A DNA stretch of 64,000 nt, taken from Catenulispora sp. MAP5-51. GTDB taxonomy: Bacteria > Actinomycetota > Actinomycetes > Streptomycetales > Catenulisporaceae. This document shows positions 56,089-62,655 of the stretch, in pieces (position 1 is the first letter of the stretch; each line of letters opens with the position of its first letter). A program made the translations under genes and the position numbers. Where the stretch lies: assembly GCF_041261205.1 (NCBI RefSeq), contig NZ_JBGCCH010000009.1, positions 124,001 through 188,000 on the forward strand, given 5' to 3'. The notes beneath the pieces were generated by a model. The model was given only the letters and a program-made list of their open reading frames with translations, was not told the origin of the DNA and did no database searches.

Positions 56089-57033
56089 ATGATCAGTGCC
56101 CCCCACACAAGCGGTAACGAGCGGCCGACCGGAGAGCAGTACACGATCAAGGCGGGCCAGTACACCGCCGCGATCACCGAGCTCGGGGCGGGTCTCAGGA
56201 GCCTGCGACTGGACAACCGGGAACTGATCATGGAGTTTCCCGAGGACGGCACCCCGGTCGGCGGCAGCGGCCAGCTGCTCATCCCGTGGCCGAACCGTGT
56301 CCGCGACGGCAAGTACACCTTCCGCGGCGTCGAGCGCGAGCTGGAGATCACCGAACCCGCGCGCAACAACGCGATCCACGGCCTGACCCGCAACGCCCAC
56401 TGGCACCTGGACGCCCAGACCGACTCCTCGCTCCGCCTGACCCTGCGCCTGGAGCCGCGGCCGGGCTACCCGTTCCTGCTGGACCTGGCCGCCGAGTACT
56501 CGCTGGACGAGGACGAGGGCCTGACCGTCTCGGTGACCGCGCGCAACGCCGGCGACTGGGAGGCGCCCTACGGCATCGGCTCGCACGCCTACCTGAAGGT
56601 GGACGGCGGCCTGGACGGCCCGCAGGGCCTGACCCAGGTCCCGGCCGGCCGCTGGCTGATGGTCGACGAGCGCATGATCCCGCAGTGCGAGGTCCCGGTC
56701 GGCGGCACCCCGTACGACTTCCGCGACCGCCGCCAGCTGCGTGGCGTGACCTTGGACACGGCCTACACGGACATCGTCCGCGACGCCGACGGCCAGGCCC
56801 GCGTCACCCTCGGCCAGGGCGTGGACGGCGTGACGATGTGGTTCGGCGCCGGCCTGGAGTGGGTGCAGCTGTTCTCCGGCGACCCGCTGGACGCGCCGTA
56901 CCGCCGCTCGGCCCTGGCGGTCGAGCCGATGAGCTGCCCGCCGAACGCCTTCGCCAGCGGCAAGGGCCTGATCGTGCTGGAGCGCGGCGAGTCGGTGACG
57001 CACACCTGGGGCATCGTGGTGGGCACGGCCTAG
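56089..57033 (+). CDS. Aldose 1-epimerase (galactose mutarotase-like)
   Basis: 314 residues. The galactose-mutarotase fold is shown by LIPWPNRVRDGKYTF, the His in NAIHGLTRNAHW, the second His in YGIGSHAYLKV and the catalytic Glu region AVEPMSCPPNAFASG near the C-terminus. It interconverts alpha and beta anomers of aldoses in the cytosol; some relatives act on hexose 6-phosphates. The ATG at 56089 lies inside the gcvT terminator-proximal gap; GGGAG is 9 nt upstream. It is followed after 2 nt by the metallo-beta-lactamase-fold gene. Confidence 0.9.
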   Translation: MISAPHTSGNERPTGEQYTIKAGQYTAAITELGAGLRSLRLDNRELIMEFPEDGTPVGGSGQLLIPWPNRVRDGKYTFRGVERELEITEPARNNAIHGLTRNAHWHLDAQTDSSLRLTLRLEPRPGYPFLLDLAAEYSLDEDEGLTVSVTARNAGDWEAPYGIGSHAYLKVDGGLDGPQGLTQVPAGRWLMVDERMIPQCEVPVGGTPYDFRDRRQLRGVTLDTAYTDIVRDADGQARVTLGQGVDGVTMWFGAGLEWVQLFSGDPLDAPYRRSALAVEPMSCPPNAFASGKGLIVLERGESVTHTWGIVVGTA

Positions 57034-57035
57034 CC

Positions 57036-57980
57036 GTGGAGAGCCCGGTTCAGAGCCCACTGGACCTGCACTGGAACCACGGCGTACCGCGCTGGGGGCG
57101 TCGGGGGCGCGGGGGTCGCGGGGGTCCGCGCTCGGCCGCGGAGCCGCCGATCCAGGTGCAGTCGTACGGCGAGCGCACGGTGATCTTGCGCCAGAGCAAG
57201 AGCACGAGTTTCGAGGCGCCGTTCATCTACCTGCTCTTCGGCGAGGACCGCGCCTTCCTGCTCGACACCGGGGCCACCGCCGACCCGGCGGTCTTCCCGC
57301 TGCGCGAGACGGTCGACGCCCTGGTCGCGGACTGGCTGCGCCGGCACCCGCGCGAGGGGTACGAGCTGGTGGTCGCGCACACGCACGGCCATGGCGACCA
57401 CGTCGCGGCCGACGCGCAGTTCGCCGGCCGGCCGGACACGGTCGTCGTCGGCAAGGAGCCGGAGGCGGTGCGGGAGTTCTTCGGGTTCGACGACGCCCGC
57501 TGGCCGGACCAGGAGGTGGAATTCGACCTCGGCGGCCGCGTGCTCCGGGCGATCGGCGCCCCCGGCCACCACGCGGCGGGGGTGGTGTTCTTCGACCCCG
57601 AGACCGGCTTCCTGCTGACCGGCGACACCGTGTACCCGGGCCGGATCTACGTCGCGGACTACCCGGAACTGGTGGCCACGCTGAACCGCCTGGTGGCGTT
57701 CTGCGCCACGCACGAGGTGACGTGGGTGATGGGCTGCCACGTCGAGATGACCGACCGGCCCTGCCGCGACTACCCGGCCGGGGCGACGTACCAGCCGCGC
57801 GAGCGTGCGCTGCCGATGACGGCGGCGCAGCTGACCGCGCTGCGCGACGCGGCGGTGCGGGTCGGCGGACGGCGCGGGGTGCACAGGTTCGAGGACTTCA
57901 TCGTGTTCTACGAGCCCTCGGGACTGGCGAAGCGGATGTTCTTCGCTCGCGCTCTGCGGGCGCGTGTGATGGGCCGCTAG
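57036..57980 (+). CDS. Metallo-beta-lactamase-fold hydrolase
   Basis: 314 residues from the GTG at 57036, 2 nt after the preceding stop; later starts are possible because the first 45 residues are Gly/Arg-rich and unconserved. The zinc site HTHGHGDH and the downstream metal residues (GAPGHHAAGV, GDTVYPGR, MGCHVEM) define a binuclear MBL-fold enzyme. General hydrolase of thioesters, lactones or glyoxalase-like substrates; no specific substrate is visible. It overlaps the convergent cobS stop by 4 nt. Confidence 0.85.
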   Translation: MESPVQSPLDLHWNHGVPRWGRRGRGGRGGPRSAAEPPIQVQSYGERTVILRQSKSTSFEAPFIYLLFGEDRAFLLDTGATADPAVFPLRETVDALVADWLRRHPREGYELVVAHTHGHGDHVAADAQFAGRPDTVVVGKEPEAVREFFGFDDARWPDQEVEFDLGGRVLRAIGAPGHHAAGVVFFDPETGFLLTGDTVYPGRIYVADYPELVATLNRLVAFCATHEVTWVMGCHVEMTDRPCRDYPAGATYQPRERALPMTAAQLTALRDAAVRVGGRRGVHRFEDFIVFYEPSGLAKRMFFARALRARVMGR

Positions 57981-58771
57981 CGAGCCAGAACCACCAGCGC
58001 GGCGGTGAATCCGACCTCGACGAGCGCGCCCAGCACGTCGCCGGTGATCCCGCCGAACCGCCGGATCGCGTGCCGCAGCACCAGGGTCGCGGCTCCGACG
58101 CCCACCACCACCGCGGCCGGCCACAGCAGCCACCGCGCCCCGTCGCTCACCCAGCACCCTGCGATACCGGCCACGCCCACCGCGAGGACCGACACCACGC
58201 CGACCGCCATCCGCGAAACGCTCCCCGCGACCCACGCCCCCAGCCCGTCGGGCCGCGCGGACGGCACACCCGGCCGGCAGGCCCACGTCACCGCGAGGCG
58301 CCCCGCGACGCAGGCCACTGCCAGGGCGCACGCGCCGTACCAGGCCCCGTGCCGGCCCCAGGCGCCCGCGAGCAGCAGCACCTGGCCGAGCAGCGCCAGC
58401 ACCAGCGTGACGACCCCGAACGGGCCGATGTCCGAGGCCTTCATGATGCGCAGCGCATCCGCCGCCGGCTTGGCCGAGCCGAGCCCGTCGGCGGTGTCGG
58501 CGAGACCGTCGAGATGCAGGCCGCGGGTCAGCGCGGCCAGCGTCGCCACCCCGCCGACCGCCGCGACGACAGGACTGGACGTCCACCACCCGAGCCCCGC
58601 ACCGACGGCCGCACCCAACGCGCCGAGCACCGCGCCGACCACGGGCGCGCAGGCCATGGCGCGCCCCGCCACCGACCGGTCGACCTCGCGCGGCGGCCCG
58701 ACGGGCAGGGCGGTGAGGGTCGAGAAGGCGAGGCGGAGGCCGTTGGCCCACCGCGCGCCAGGAGCATTCAT
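57977..58771 (-). CDS. cobS: Adenosylcobinamide-GDP ribazoletransferase (cobalamin synthase)
   Basis: 264-residue polytopic membrane enzyme joining the lower ligand to the corrin ring in the last step of cobalamin synthesis. FSTLTALPVG at the N-terminus, LTRGLHLDGLADTADGLG with the catalytic Asp cluster, and KASDIGPFGVV are diagnostic. The ATG at 58771 falls inside the last copy of a tandem repeat that starts at the cobT stop, so the spacer and possibly the ribosome-binding site derive from that duplication. The open frame continues upstream through the repeats without a stop. Confidence 0.94.
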   Translation of the reverse strand: MNAPGARWANGLRLAFSTLTALPVGPPREVDRSVAGRAMACAPVVGAVLGALGAAVGAGLGWWTSSPVVAAVGGVATLAALTRGLHLDGLADTADGLGSAKPAADALRIMKASDIGPFGVVTLVLALLGQVLLLAGAWGRHGAWYGACALAVACVAGRLAVTWACRPGVPSARPDGLGAWVAGSVSRMAVGVVSVLAVGVAGIAGCWVSDGARWLLWPAAVVVGVGAATLVLRHAIRRFGGITGDVLGALVEVGFTAALVVLAR

Positions 58772-58992
58772 ACCCGCGACCGCGGCGCCGGCTTCGTCCC
58801 GCCGATCGCTGTCTCGCTCGCCGGCAGTGCTCACACCTGCGGCCGCGACCGCAGCACCGGGTTGGTCTCGCGTATCGCTGTCTCGCTCGCCGGCAGTGCT
58901 CACACCTGTGGCCGTGACCGCAGCACCGGCTTCGTCTTGCCGATCGCCGTCCAGCCGATCGCCAGGCCTCACACCCGCGACCGCAGCACCGG
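58772..58992 (-). repeat. 69-nt tandem repeat filling the cobT-cobS spacer
   Basis: The anchor ending GC[A/G]CCGG recurs at 58791, 58860, 58929 and 58992 on the plus strand: periods 69, 69 and 63 nt, all divisible by three. Read on the minus strand, each copy repeats the end of cobT (CTGCGGTCGCGGGTGTGA-like). In the last copy the sequence is GGTATGAATG, giving the cobS start codon. Confidence 0.93.
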
Positions 58993-60216
58993 CTCCGGGA
59001 TCCCGGCCTCGGCGAACGTCGGCAGCTCCGCGGCCAGCGCGGCGGCGGCCTTCACCATCGGCAGTGCGAGCAGGCCCAGGGCGCCCTCGGCCTGGCGGAC
59101 CTCGTAGCCCTCGACCAGCGGTTCGAGCGAGAGTCGGTCCAGGGCCGCCTTGTGCGCCGGCTCCGGGGACAGCGCGCCGGCCAGCAGCCACTGCGGTGAG
59201 CGGTAGGCGATGCGCTGGACCAGCATCGCGCAGGCGGTGGTGGTGACGCCGTCGAGCAGGACCGGCACGCGCCGGATCACCGCCTGGAGCAGGAAGCCCG
59301 TCAGCGCCGCGAAGTCGCGGCCGCCGACCTTGGTCAGCAGCTCCAGTTGGTCGCCGAGGACCGGGCGTCCCCGGCGCATCGCGTCGCGGACGGCCGCGCA
59401 CTTGCGCATCCAGGCGGTGTCGTCCACGCCGGAGCCGCGGCCGGTCACCGCCGCCGCGTCCTTGCCGGTCAGCACGCCGGACAGCACCGAGGCCACCGTG
59501 CTGCCGCCCACGCCGACCATCGCCGGGATCAGCACGTCCGCGCCGGAGTCGGCCTCGGCGTCGGCCACGCTCATGCCCAGGCGGAAGGCCTCCTCGATCT
59601 GCGCGCGAGTGGCCGCGTCCTCCTTGTCGACCCGGCCCGAGGGGCTGCCGACCGCCACGTCGACCACGCGCACGGTCGCGCCGTGCAGCCGGGCCAGGAC
59701 ACCGACCGCGCCGCCCCCGTCCTCGATCTGCTTCACCCGCGCCGCTGTGACAGCCTGCGCCTGCTCCGGAGCCGTGGCCGACACGCCGAGCGCCGCCACC
59801 CCGTGGTCGCCGGCGAACACCACGACCCGGGCCCGCTCGATCGCCTTCGCCGCACCGCTGCCGCGCGCGCCGGCCAGCCAGACCGCCAGCTCCTCCAACC
59901 GCCCCAGCCCAGCCGCCGGAACGGCCAACTCGGCCAGCCGCGCACGCATCTGGTCACGGGCCGCCTCGTCCGGCCGCTCGGCCTGGTCGGCGAGCTGGTC
60001 GAGGTTCAGGGGCTCGGGACCGGAAGGCAGGTCGGAGTCGGTACCGGCGTCGGCAGAGGTTTCAGCGTCCGGGGCAGCCTCGCCGGCCTCTGCGACGATC
60101 TCAGCCTCGGCCTGGCTCTCGACCGCGACGGTCTCGGTCTCGGCCTCGACCGCGGCCGCCGCACGGGGCTCGGGCAGGTCGGCCGACTCGGGGGTGGGGT
60201 TCTCGGGCGCGTCCAT
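58969..60216 (-). CDS. cobT: Nicotinate-nucleotide-dimethylbenzimidazole phosphoribosyltransferase
   Basis: 415 residues. CobT activates dimethylbenzimidazole as the alpha-ribotide for cobalamin's lower ligand. FAGDHGVAALGVSA, MVGVGGSTVASVLSG, TGRGSGVDD and LLDGVTTTACAMLVQRI are typical, and the catalytic Glu region reads VRQAEGALGLLALPMV in place of the usual GEGTGA-type loop. The N-terminal ~75 residues are a Glu/Ala-rich acidic extension not needed for the fold. The stop is the founder of a 69-nt tandem repeat running to cobS. Confidence 0.93.
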   Translation of the reverse strand: MDAPENPTPESADLPEPRAAAAVEAETETVAVESQAEAEIVAEAGEAAPDAETSADAGTDSDLPSGPEPLNLDQLADQAERPDEAARDQMRARLAELAVPAAGLGRLEELAVWLAGARGSGAAKAIERARVVVFAGDHGVAALGVSATAPEQAQAVTAARVKQIEDGGGAVGVLARLHGATVRVVDVAVGSPSGRVDKEDAATRAQIEEAFRLGMSVADAEADSGADVLIPAMVGVGGSTVASVLSGVLTGKDAAAVTGRGSGVDDTAWMRKCAAVRDAMRRGRPVLGDQLELLTKVGGRDFAALTGFLLQAVIRRVPVLLDGVTTTACAMLVQRIAYRSPQWLLAGALSPEPAHKAALDRLSLEPLVEGYEVRQAEGALGLLALPMVKAAAALAAELPTFAEAGIPEPVLRSRV

Positions 60217-60288
60217 GGTGCGAACAGCCTAGCGGCGGCGCCCTCGGCGTGGGGAAGCCCCGCGCCCCGCGCCCCCGTGCCCCCGCGC

Positions 60289-60897
60289 CTACTTCACCGC
60301 CATCGCGATCCCGGCCACCATCAGCACCACCGCCTCCGAGGCCGCCGCGATCCGCTGGTTCAGCCGCCCCTGCTCGTCCCGGAAGCGCCGCACCGCCGCG
60401 CTCTCCGGCACGATCCCCAGCCCGACCTCGTTGCTCACCGCCAGCACCGGCACCGTCGCCGCGCGCCACGCGTCCTCGAGCTCGTCGAACCGGGCCGCCA
60501 GCTTCTGCTCGCCGCCGCCGTACCAGGCCTCGTCGTCCCAGGCGCCGGCCTCGTCCATCATCGCCGTCAGCCACAGGGTCAGGCAGTCCACCAGCACCGG
60601 CCGGGTCGCGCCGCGCAGCACGGCGGCGACGTCCGCCGTCTCCGCCGTGGCCCAGGAATCCGGCCGCCGTTCCCGGTGCCGCCGGACCCGCTCGGCCCAG
60701 TCGGCGTCGCCGTCCCGCCGGCCGCCGGTCGCGACGTAGAGCGCGTCGCCGGGGCGGCCGGCGCCGTCAGCCAGGAGGGTGAGCCGACGCTCGGCCTCGG
60801 AGGACTTACCCGAACGCGCGCCGCCAAGGATCAACGTCCGCGTTATGTTATTCAGCGATGGCTGGGCGATTGAAGGGGTCAACACTGTGACTTTCAT
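60289..60897 (-). CDS. cobU: Adenosylcobinamide kinase/guanylyltransferase
   Basis: 202 residues. CobU/CobP phosphorylates adenosylcobinamide and then adds GMP, before cobS. P-loop LILGGARSGKSSEAE, VDCLTLWLTAMM, and VLAVSNEVGLGIVPE are characteristic. The longest start is an ATG at 60897; a GTG at 60885 is also possible. Both lie inside the 5' end of the divergent 69-residue gene, so the two genes share no intergenic space. cobT is 72 nt downstream on the same strand, giving cobU-cobT-cobS in order. Confidence 0.92.
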   Translation of the reverse strand: MKVTVLTPSIAQPSLNNITRTLILGGARSGKSSEAERRLTLLADGAGRPGDALYVATGGRRDGDADWAERVRRHRERRPDSWATAETADVAAVLRGATRPVLVDCLTLWLTAMMDEAGAWDDEAWYGGGEQKLAARFDELEDAWRAATVPVLAVSNEVGLGIVPESAAVRRFRDEQGRLNQRIAAASEAVVLMVAGIAMAVK

Positions 60898-61096
60898 GTG
60901 GCGTTATGAGGACACCGCCGGCGGCGAGAAGGACACCGGTGCGAAACCGGAGGAGTTCTCCACGCAGTCCGACGCCGAGAGCTGGATCGGAGAGAACTGG
61001 AAGGACCTCCTGGAGGCCGGGGTCGACCAGGTCACGCTGATGGAGGACACCGCGGTCGTCTACGGCCCGATGTCGCTGCACCCGGTGGAGCAATAG
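60887..61096 (+). CDS. Conserved small acidic protein divergent from cobU
   Basis: 69 residues from a GTG at 60887 with AAGGGG 8 nt upstream (an ATG at 60896 is the alternative). MTFMWRYEDTAGGEKD and SDAESWIGENWKDLLEAGVDQVTLMEDTAVVYGPMSL are compact and acidic, with no motif I recognise. The good Shine-Dalgarno, codon use and intact frame argue for a real gene. Its 5' end overlaps that of cobU on the other strand. Function unknown. Confidence 0.75.
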   Translation: MTFMWRYEDTAGGEKDTGAKPEEFSTQSDAESWIGENWKDLLEAGVDQVTLMEDTAVVYGPMSLHPVEQ

Positions 61097-61098
61097 TC

Positions 61099-61587
61099 TC
61101 ACCCGGCCGGCGACGGCTCGCGGGTATACGAGGCCACTTTGCTGCGGCCGGCGTAGGTGACGTCCATCACGACGTGCTCGCCGGCCAGCACCAGTGGCAG
61201 CCACAGGCGTGAGTCGTCCCACATCCGGTCGTAGGGCAGATCCGCCTCGGCCATCCAGTCCGCGGCGATCTCCGCGCTCTCCCGCGGCTCCCCGGCGTAC
61301 TTCGCCGCCGTGAAGTAGTGCAGCCGCAGATCATCCCACTCCGGCACGTCCGGGAACCGGAACGTCAGCACCGCGGCCGGCGTCAGGTCGCCCACCGCCA
61401 GCGTCATGCCGGTCTCCTCGGCGAACTCCCGCACGACCGCCTCCTCCGGACTCTCCCCGGGCTCGAGCTTGCCGCCCGGGCAGTTGATCAGACCGGCGCC
61501 GAAGCCCGTCTTCTTCAGCCCGACGAGCACTTCGGGACGTCCATCGGATCCGGTGCGCCGCAGCAGCGCGGAGGTGACGATCAGCAC
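61099..61587 (-). CDS. Nudix hydrolase, MTH1-like (8-oxo-dGTPase candidate)
   Basis: 162 residues. The Nudix box GGKLEPGESPEEAVVREFAEETGM is complete (listed residues G, E, REFAEE, G). The preceding KKTGFGAGLINCPGGK resembles the substrate-binding region of human MTH1, suggesting removal of oxidised purine nucleotides, though other nucleoside diphosphates linked to X are possible. The small acidic gene ends 2 nt away on the opposite strand. Family is secure, substrate is a guess from similarity. Confidence 0.88.
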   Translation of the reverse strand: MLIVTSALLRRTGSDGRPEVLVGLKKTGFGAGLINCPGGKLEPGESPEEAVVREFAEETGMTLAVGDLTPAAVLTFRFPDVPEWDDLRLHYFTAAKYAGEPRESAEIAADWMAEADLPYDRMWDDSRLWLPLVLAGEHVVMDVTYAGRSKVASYTREPSPAG

Positions 61588-61675
61588 CCCGCGAGCTTAG
61601 CCAGTCGCTCTCACTCGTTTGCCCGCCGCATCACTCATTGAGGTGATCAATACATGCGCCCCGCGCGCCGATCCG

Positions 61676-61697
61676 ATATTCGGGGGAACCCGAAGAT
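61676..61697 (+). promoter_or_regulatory. Inverted repeat over the HNH gene ribosome-binding site
   Basis: ATATTCGGG (61676-61684), GGAA loop, CCCGAAGAT (61689-61697), one mismatch in nine pairs, ending directly before the GTG at 61698. The purine-rich ribosome-binding sequence is inside it, so it could hide the start or be an operator. Confidence 0.5.
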
Positions 61698-61994
61698 GTG
61701 AGTGGATCGCAGGATCTGGTGAAGCTACCGCGAAACTGGAACCGGCTGGTACGCAAAGTCATGCGGCGCTGTGGCCGGCGCTGCGAATGGAAGCACGCCC
61801 ATTTCTCGGTCGGCTGCTCCCGCGAGGCCGGCATGGTCGTCCACGCCGGCAAGAAGGACGACCACTCCCTGGACAACCTCCTCGGCCTGTGCACATGGCA
61901 CGCCGCGCAGAAGGCGGCCCTGGAATGGGAGGCCAGCTTGCACGTCGCGATCAAAGTCCGACCGCCGGCCGAGGACAAGAGGGACAAGTCCTAG
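61698..61994 (+). CDS. HNH-type small protein
   Basis: 98 residues from a GTG. The layout WNRLVRKVMRRCGRRCEW, GCSREAGMVVHAGKKDDHSLDNLLGLCTWHAAQK matches actinobacterial and actinophage HNH endonucleases: zinc Cys pairs, then His, Asn and His of the beta-beta-alpha metal motif. The usual residue before the first His is Asp (VDHI); here it reads VVHA, so nuclease activity is uncertain. Single-domain and short, it may be a free-standing nuclease or a domesticated phage relic. The stop overlaps a 9-nt tandem repeat. Confidence 0.78.
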   Translation: MSGSQDLVKLPRNWNRLVRKVMRRCGRRCEWKHAHFSVGCSREAGMVVHAGKKDDHSLDNLLGLCTWHAAQKAALEWEASLHVAIKVRPPAEDKRDKS

Positions 61995-62028
61995 ACCCTC
62001 AAGTCTCTCAAATCCCGCAGGTCCCTCA
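61993..62028. repeat. 9-nt tandem repeat between convergent stops
   Basis: Four 9-nt units at 61993-62001, 62002-62010, 62011-62019 and 62020-62028. On the minus strand they read TGAGGGACC, TGCGGGATT, TGAGAGACT, TGAGGGTCT; the first TGA is the stop of the rhomboid-like gene and two later copies are also in-frame TGA. The HNH gene's TAG overlaps the left end. Confidence 0.85.
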
Positions 62029-62655
62029 GGGTGCGATCCAGAAGAACGCAAACCCGATCGCCAGCGCGCACAGATGCCCGATCGCAGTGAAGTCCCGCCG
62101 GTTCTTGAGCCATCCGTACCCGTAGAAACCGATCAGCGCCACGACATAGGGCACCAGCCACGGCATCGGAATCCGGTACGCCAACACCGCCGACGCCCCA
62201 GCCTGCGCATAGCTGACGCCGTAGTCGGCCGTGGTCCGCTCCGACTGCGGAAGCCGTCCGGCGTGGATCTCCCGCGCGACCCACCCCTCGCTCAGCAGCG
62301 TCGCCCCGACGTGGGCGACCAGCAGCACCACCAGCCATCGCCACGTCCCCAGCCAGTGCTCGGCCGGGGCGTGGAAGACGCTGTAGGTCACCGCATAGAA
62401 CAGCCAACTGGTCCCCGCGGTGAAGAACAGACTGGTGATCATCACCTTGACCGGAGCGTGCCGCAGCCGATCCAGGTTCGTGGAGTTCTGTTCCAGCAGC
62501 TTCTTCGCGCGGTCGGCCGGCAGCCGCCTGACATAGAGCGACACGCCGAACAGCGCGACCAGCCACAGATAGGTCCCCGGCGCGTCGCGGACGTAGTCCC
62601 ACACGTCGGCGGGCAGACGGCTCAGCACGCTGTCACGATAGCCAAGCTCGGCCAT
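62026..62655 (-). CDS. Rhomboid-like membrane protein
   Basis: 209 residues with about six hydrophobic segments from the ATG at 62655. The region TTADYGVSYAQAGASAVLAY aligns in position with the rhomboid active-site GxSx helix, and IGHLCALAIGF holds the later His. The residue after the Ser is Tyr, not Gly, so this belongs with actinobacterial rhomboid-like proteins whose protease activity is unproven. It sits immediately downstream of a broken ftsH fragment; the frame continues upstream into it. Family moderately confident, activity unknown. Confidence 0.7.
   Translation of the reverse strand: MAELGYRDSVLSRLPADVWDYVRDAPGTYLWLVALFGVSLYVRRLPADRAKKLLEQNSTNLDRLRHAPVKVMITSLFFTAGTSWLFYAVTYSVFHAPAEHWLGTWRWLVVLLVAHVGATLLSEGWVAREIHAGRLPQSERTTADYGVSYAQAGASAVLAYRIPMPWLVPYVVALIGFYGYGWLKNRRDFTAIGHLCALAIGFAFFWIAP

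What the first reader, a model, noticed from the sequence alone, without database searches (positions are those of the whole stretch)
58772..58992. cobT-cobS spacer built from copies of the cobT end; last copy gives the cobS start
Periods of 69, 69 and 63 nt, each repeating the end of cobT including its stop region. In the final copy a base change turns the stop region into GGTATGAATG, where cobS starts. The periods keep the frame open, so read-through could make a CobT-linker-CobS product. It is an example of a gene junction that appears to be newly generated by duplication.
Basis: partly seen in the sequence, partly recalled or inferred. Interest (0 to 1): 0.6.

Follow-up and report, generated by a model that had tools for sequence, protein, structure and literature searches.

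The report
Duplicated cobT-cobS stop-start junction
A short overlap between two vitamin B12 genes in a soil actinobacterium has been copied head to tail, most likely adding a floppy, repeat-built tail to the front of the second protein; it is a neat but probably minor example of how gene starts move.

Summary
The repeats are real: spacings of 63, 69 and 69 nt on the minus strand, far above shuffles. Each copy repeats the cobT end and with it the GTGA (ATGA in the last copy), where a stop in the cobT frame overlaps a start in the cobS frame.

The interpretation needs changing. Three of nine readable Catenulispora junctions are compact and without repeats; there the only start ahead of the cobS core is the GTG overlapping the cobT stop. 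The closest sister has homologous repeats but no start in its last copy; that same GTG is its only ATG/GTG/TTG between cobT and the core. So the last copy hardly "gives" the cobS start. Likeliest: duplication of a 4-nt overlap lengthened CobS by 67 disordered residues (pLDDT below 50 for residues 1-48). Read-through cannot fuse CobT to CobS: the frames differ.

In three other species the frame from that GTG ends exactly on an NTGA at cobS, a possible bridge ORF; G004 (C. acidiphila) has none. This idea is post hoc and was not enriched at other repeat junctions. The linker shows no sign of amino-acid constraint. Modest interest.

The parts
58969..60216 (-). cobT (NaMN:DMB phosphoribosyltransferase), stop TGA at 58971-58969
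   Evidence: ORF list; PF02277 E 4.4e-91
58969..58972 (-). GTGA: cobT stop overlapping a GTG in the cobS frame; probable ancestral and present cobS start
   Evidence: the same overlap is the only start ahead of the cobS core in G002, G009 and G005, which have no repeats
58934..58996 (-). repeat copy 1, 63 nt (native cobT end plus 35 nt)
58865..58933 (-). repeat copy 2, 69 nt, GTGA at 58903-58900
58796..58864 (-). repeat copy 3, 69 nt, GTGA at 58834-58831; 90% identical to copy 2
58763..58795 (-). repeat copy 4, partial (33 nt), runs into the cobS core; ATGA at 58771-58768
58772..58972 (-). proposed repeat-built N-terminal extension of CobS, 67 codons, open in the cobS frame
   Evidence: the G008 equivalent has no other ATG/GTG/TTG before its core; AlphaFold pLDDT below 50 for residues 1-48
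57977..58771 (-). cobS from the ATG (short form), adenosylcobinamide-GDP ribazoletransferase
   Evidence: PF02654 at residues 82-327 of the 331-aa long form; best NCBIfam match NF001279, below its cut-off

Best explanation
The cobT-cobS pair of this Catenulispora genome descends from a compact pair in which the cobT stop and the cobS start overlapped by four bases (GTGA). A unit spanning that overlap was duplicated head to tail in the ancestor shared with G008, and once more in this lineage. Because all units are multiples of three, and the overlap itself was copied, cobS stays in frame with its original GTG at 58972. A ribosome that ends cobT at 58969 can restart there and make CobS with a 67-residue disordered tail. 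The copied GTG/ATG codons at 58903, 58834 and 58771 are spare in-frame starts that may give shorter forms. Shown: repeats, frames, overlap, states in relatives, absence of another start between cobT and the core in the sister. Inferred: the polarity (compact first), restart at the GTG, and that the tail is tolerated rather than useful.
For: Repeats and frames. Compact GTGA junction in G002, G009 and G005, and a GTGA overlap in G015 of another family. In G008 the cobS frame has GTG at codon 1, then no ATG/GTG/TTG until codon 76, past the conserved core that starts at codon 53. In G008 the cobS frame has 0 stops in the linker against 3 and 4 in the other frames. All spacings in both species are multiples of 3. 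My simple gene caller, which knew nothing of this, put the G008 cobS start at the 4-nt overlap. No Shine-Dalgarno at any of the four sites (-2.5 kcal each; called genes median -5.3, random places -3.0), which suits a coupled start. Experiments in E. coli and Haloferax found coupling almost abolished by about 20 nt of spacer (PMC10666635, abstract), so a start 200 nt beyond the cobT stop would be uncoupled. AlphaFold: residues 1-48 below 50.
Against: The ATG at 58771 gives a CobS of the length usual in the compact relatives, and ATG is the better codon. My gene caller chose the GTG of copy 3 (58834) in the window, not 58972. In the window the third frame of the linker is open as well, so openness there proves little; 22% (window) and 41% (G008) of shuffles stay open in frame. 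Differences among copies show no excess at third codon positions, and the G+C by codon position of the G008 linker is flat (0.76/0.73/0.75); the same count for the window failed in that script. The lack of a Shine-Dalgarno is not special: the cobT and cobU starts lack one too (-2.1 and -1.7 kcal). No expression or peptide data.
Confidence: 0.6

Rival explanations
1. Short CobS: the ATG at 58771, made by a G to A change in the last copy, is the main start, and the repeat is an untranslated, neutral minisatellite between the two genes.
For: ATG start, normal CobS length, no codon-position signal. G004 has a repeat spacer with stops and an ATG start. Repeats in same-strand junctions are common also in G014, of another family (20 of 170 junctions).
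Against: No Shine-Dalgarno and a 200-nt gap from the cobT stop; the homologous last copy in G008 has no start; the cobS frame is open in both.
Confidence: 0.3
2. Bridge ORFs: after a duplication the frame beginning at the GTG in the cobT stop is kept open either into cobS or up to a stop that overlaps the cobS start (NTGA), so coupling passes step by step across the expanded junction in the whole genus.
For: Five of six expanded junctions behave so: window and G008 in frame; G001, G006 and G007 end on NTGA at cobS. Shuffle chances are 0.22, 0.41, 0.09, 0.07 and 0.19. Two other junctions look alike: G004 2008831-2009186 and, less exactly, G006:C4 71738-72062.
Against: Defined after seeing the data; G004 is a counter-case; G001/G006 and window/G008 may not be independent. 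At 17 repeat-bearing NTGA junctions of four Catenulispora genomes bridges were hardly more frequent than in shuffles (relay 3 against 2.33 expected, in frame 6 against 4.65). At junctions without arrays relays were above expectation in Catenulispora (13 against 7.68 of 81) and in G014 (5 against 2.6 of 27), so they are not tied to repeats; missed small genes may explain them. In 37 array junctions the coupled frame was open in 14, the two other frames in 12 each.
Confidence: 0.25
3. Read-through or fusion product CobT-linker-CobS.
For: The cobS frame is open far into cobT (ORF 57977-59401).
Against: That frame is not the cobT frame; TGA in the cobT frame in all four copies.
Confidence: 0.03

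Closest known systems
Translational coupling of 4-nt-overlap gene pairs by termination-reinitiation (PMC6728339, title and start of abstract in the search listing; PMC10666635, abstract)
   Same: Co-directed pair, stop and start overlapping as GTGA, no own Shine-Dalgarno.
   Different: Here the overlap is present four times, in frame with the second gene; coupling not measured.
Initiation at AUGUG/GUGUG motifs (PMC9841429, abstract)
   Same: Copies 1-3 contain GUGUGA, two start codons in different frames.
   Different: That work concerns E. coli start sites; here the first GTG is followed at once by a stop.
Ordinary in-frame tandem repeats in disordered N-terminal tails (general knowledge, recalled)
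   Same: Alanine-rich, unstructured, multiple-of-three units, variable between species.
   Different: The unit is made from a gene junction, so it carries the end of one gene and the start of the next.

Membership tests
CobS (PF02654) | CobS domain match above the Pfam cut-off | tested here: met
   E 8.4e-45, 153.9 bits against 23.2. All six NCBIfam CobS models matched below their curated cut-offs.
4-nt-overlap coupled gene pair | Stop of the first gene overlaps a start codon in the frame of the second by 4 nt | tested here: met
   GTGA at 58972-58969, in the cobS frame
4-nt-overlap coupled gene pair | That start is the one used | tested here: inconclusive
   In G008 no other ATG/GTG/TTG lies between cobT and the core; in the window three more in-frame starts exist
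4-nt-overlap coupled gene pair | Translation of the second gene depends on the first | not testable with these tools
   Needs reporters
Tandem repeat (minisatellite) | Head-to-tail copies well above chance | tested here: met
   TRF 279 against a maximum of 62 in 500 shuffles
CobT-CobS read-through fusion | Both genes in one frame with nothing but the stop between | tested here: not met
   Frames differ; TGA in the cobT frame in every copy

The most novel reading that the evidence does not exclude
In Catenulispora the cobT-cobS overlap is a recurrent site of tandem expansion. Selection for coupled translation lets mainly those expansions survive that keep a translated bridge, either as a CobS tail or as a small ORF entered and left through NTGA overlaps: a route by which repeat DNA becomes new coding sequence.
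Probability: 0.22. Interest if true: 0.6.

Novelty: new variant of a known kind. Interest (0 to 1): 0.35.

Why it matters
If the long form is made, this is a clear case of an overlapping stop-start site being copied so that new N-terminal sequence appears without breaking the link to the upstream gene. With nine related junctions, three of them compact, it offers a natural series for testing how far coupling tolerates spacers. No effect on B12 synthesis is claimed.

Tried and rejected
Special RNA structure in the repeat: not supported. Units and the whole spacer fold no better than shuffles (z from -1.56, for copy 1, to 1.37), and Rfam finds nothing in 56500-62500 at gathering thresholds.

A dispersed element: not supported. 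In the own genome the junction occurs once; the four other matches are 25-31 nt at E 2.8e-4 to 9.6e-4 (which scored 40 of 543 candidates).

A repeat-rich genus: not supported. Arrays in same-strand junctions: 14 arrays for 159 junctions, 19 for 186, 7 for 148, 11 for 151, against 20 for 170 in G014.

cobT-cobS as an outlier in length variation: no. It ranks 21st of the 111 junctions that could be compared in four species.

Bridge ORFs as a general rule: not supported. A second, ortholog-based list (33-69 compact junctions tested per ordered species pair) gave 14 expanded junctions. Of seven whose compact relative overlaps, the coupled frame was in frame in 4, open in 2, stopped in 1; of seven with a short gap, open in 3, stopped in 4. 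One of the four in-frame cases is cobT-cobS itself, listed only because my caller gave G008 the long start, so it is no comparison with a compact relative; others may likewise be start-call differences. Too few to decide.

Solved CobS structures: phmmer gave no match at E 0.01. Papers: among the titles and abstract beginnings listed (12 of 21 listed; 10 of 17 listed; some found none) I saw nothing on duplicated stop-start overlaps; the library is open-access only and few terms were tried.

Limits: gene calls come from a simple codon-usage caller of mine, and some starts are wrong. G003 was left out of junction counts, because its cobT and cobS lie at contig ends. Junctions of G010-G013 and G015 were read but are not among the nine. 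The alignment for the structure used 24 of the 80 loci. The window part of the linker G+C count failed (the stretch was cut to 11 nt).

Full report
What was checked. The window lies in an unnamed 10.9-Mb genome. The genus is Catenulispora by inference: contigs of its same-genus relatives G002, G009 and G007 have the same lengths as contigs titled Catenulispora pinistramenti, C. pinisilvae and a Catenulisporales MAG. G004, a single contig of 10,467,782 bases, is C. acidiphila by a genome length that I recall, not by a record. On the minus strand the order is cobU, cobT, cobS.

The repeat. Units begin at 58996, 58933, 58864 and 58795, spaced 63, 69 and 69 nt; copies 2 and 3 carry 6 nt that copies 1 and 4 lack. 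TRF score 279 against at most 62 in 500 shuffles; the cobT end matches the spacer at 24 of 28 against at most 22 in 1000 shuffles. Copies 2 and 3 are 90% identical, copy 1 against 2 76%. NTGA sites lie at 58972, 58903, 58834 (GTGA) and 58771 (ATGA), all with the start codon in the cobS frame and the TGA in the cobT frame. So what is copied is not just a stop but a stop-start overlap.

Relatives. All 9 same-genus genomes searched have a cobS match, in pieces in G003 and G005; with the window, 9 of 10 junctions could be read (not G003). From the cobT stop to the conserved core the distances are: window 230, G008 155, G001 148, G006 235, G004 114, G007 142, G002 29, G009 29, G005 26 nt. TRF finds repeats in 5 of the 6 long spacers (not G007) and in none of the 3 short ones, with different main units: 69 nt (window), 63 (G008), 15/30 (G001), 15/61 (G006), 8/18/24 (G004). 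A tree of cobT and cobS cores (11 rows; G005 by cobT alone) groups the window with G008 (100/99), G002 with G009 (100/100) and, less surely, G005 with G007 (92/98); the rest is unresolved. Compact junctions therefore occur in two separate places, and a GTGA overlap also in G015 of another family. I infer that compact is ancestral and that expansion happened several times; expansion followed by contraction is not excluded.

Where cobS starts. In the three compact relatives the only start ahead of the core is the GTG overlapping the cobT stop. In G008, whose 63-nt copies look homologous, the last copy lacks a start, and the cobS frame has no ATG/GTG/TTG between codon 1 (that GTG) and codon 76, past the core at codon 53; CTG codons at 22 and 51 are possible but rare starts, and two upstream in-frame starts lie 73 and 143 codons inside cobT. 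By homology the window should use GTG 58972, giving a 331-aa CobS. None of the four sites has a Shine-Dalgarno, but neither do the cobT and cobU starts (anti-SD sequence recalled). Huber et al. report that about 20 nt of spacer almost abolish coupling (abstract). My gene caller picked the overlap GTG in G008 and the GTG of copy 3 in the window. In the AlphaFold model of the long form the block means are 34-41 over residues 1-50, 59-61 over 51-70 and mostly above 90 after that, with a dip to 66-78 over 151-190.

What speaks against more than that. Among copies there is no excess of changes at third codon positions, and the G008 linker has no codon-position G+C pattern. At this G+C an open frame is cheap: 22% and 41% of shuffles stay open, and in the window the third frame is open too. 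The linker may simply be tolerated, or not translated at all.

The bridge idea. In G001, G006 and G007 the frame from the GTG runs through the spacer and ends in a TGA overlapping the cobS start. If all five coupling-keeping junctions were independent the chance product is about 1e-4; with one per lineage (window, G001, G007) about 4e-3, and G004 is a failure. These products are mine and post hoc. A look at other junctions gave no clear excess at repeat arrays, although single cases are striking. In G004 2008831-2009186 an ORF entered at TTGA crosses five 63-nt copies and leaves at GTGA; the relatives have a 14-nt gap there, not an overlap. In G006:C4 71738-72062, a junction that overlaps in three species (gaps -4, -4, -1), there is a 72-nt array in which the coupled frame stays open and ends 14 nt past the called start. 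In G006:C4 171009-171342 a 175-nt duplication of a junction makes a small ORF with the start of one gene and the end of the other.

Verdict. The cause (duplication of the cobT end) is right. The claim about where cobS starts is probably wrong, and the fusion claim is wrong on the frames. A tidy new variant of known things: tandem duplication and overlapping gene pairs.

Noticed in passing
57977-57980: cobS and the convergent gene at 57033-57980 (+; weak match to hydroxyacylglutathione hydrolases, below cut-off) share their stop codons in the palindrome CTAG.
   Followed up: partly
58969-60216: CobT also carries a Glu/Ala-rich low-complexity stretch before its domain (Pfam match from residue 80), so two neighbouring genes of the operon may have repeat-like N-terminal tails.
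   Followed up: no
L184 (G004:C1:2088374-2088474): G004 has a 15-nt unit in 6.7 perfect copies just upstream of cobT and a 34-nt array at 2090924-2091013; with the cobT-cobS array, 3 of its 7 junction arrays in 320 kb lie within 4.2 kb.
   Followed up: partly
L200 (G006:C4:171009-171342): A 175-nt direct duplication across a gene junction makes a small chimeric ORF starting like the downstream gene and ending like the upstream one.
   Followed up: partly
L130 (G000:C12:238187-239203): A second CobT-like stretch (40% identity) lies in a very long open frame; 11 of 13 relatives in the family show a similar second match.
   Followed up: partly
   Followed up: no
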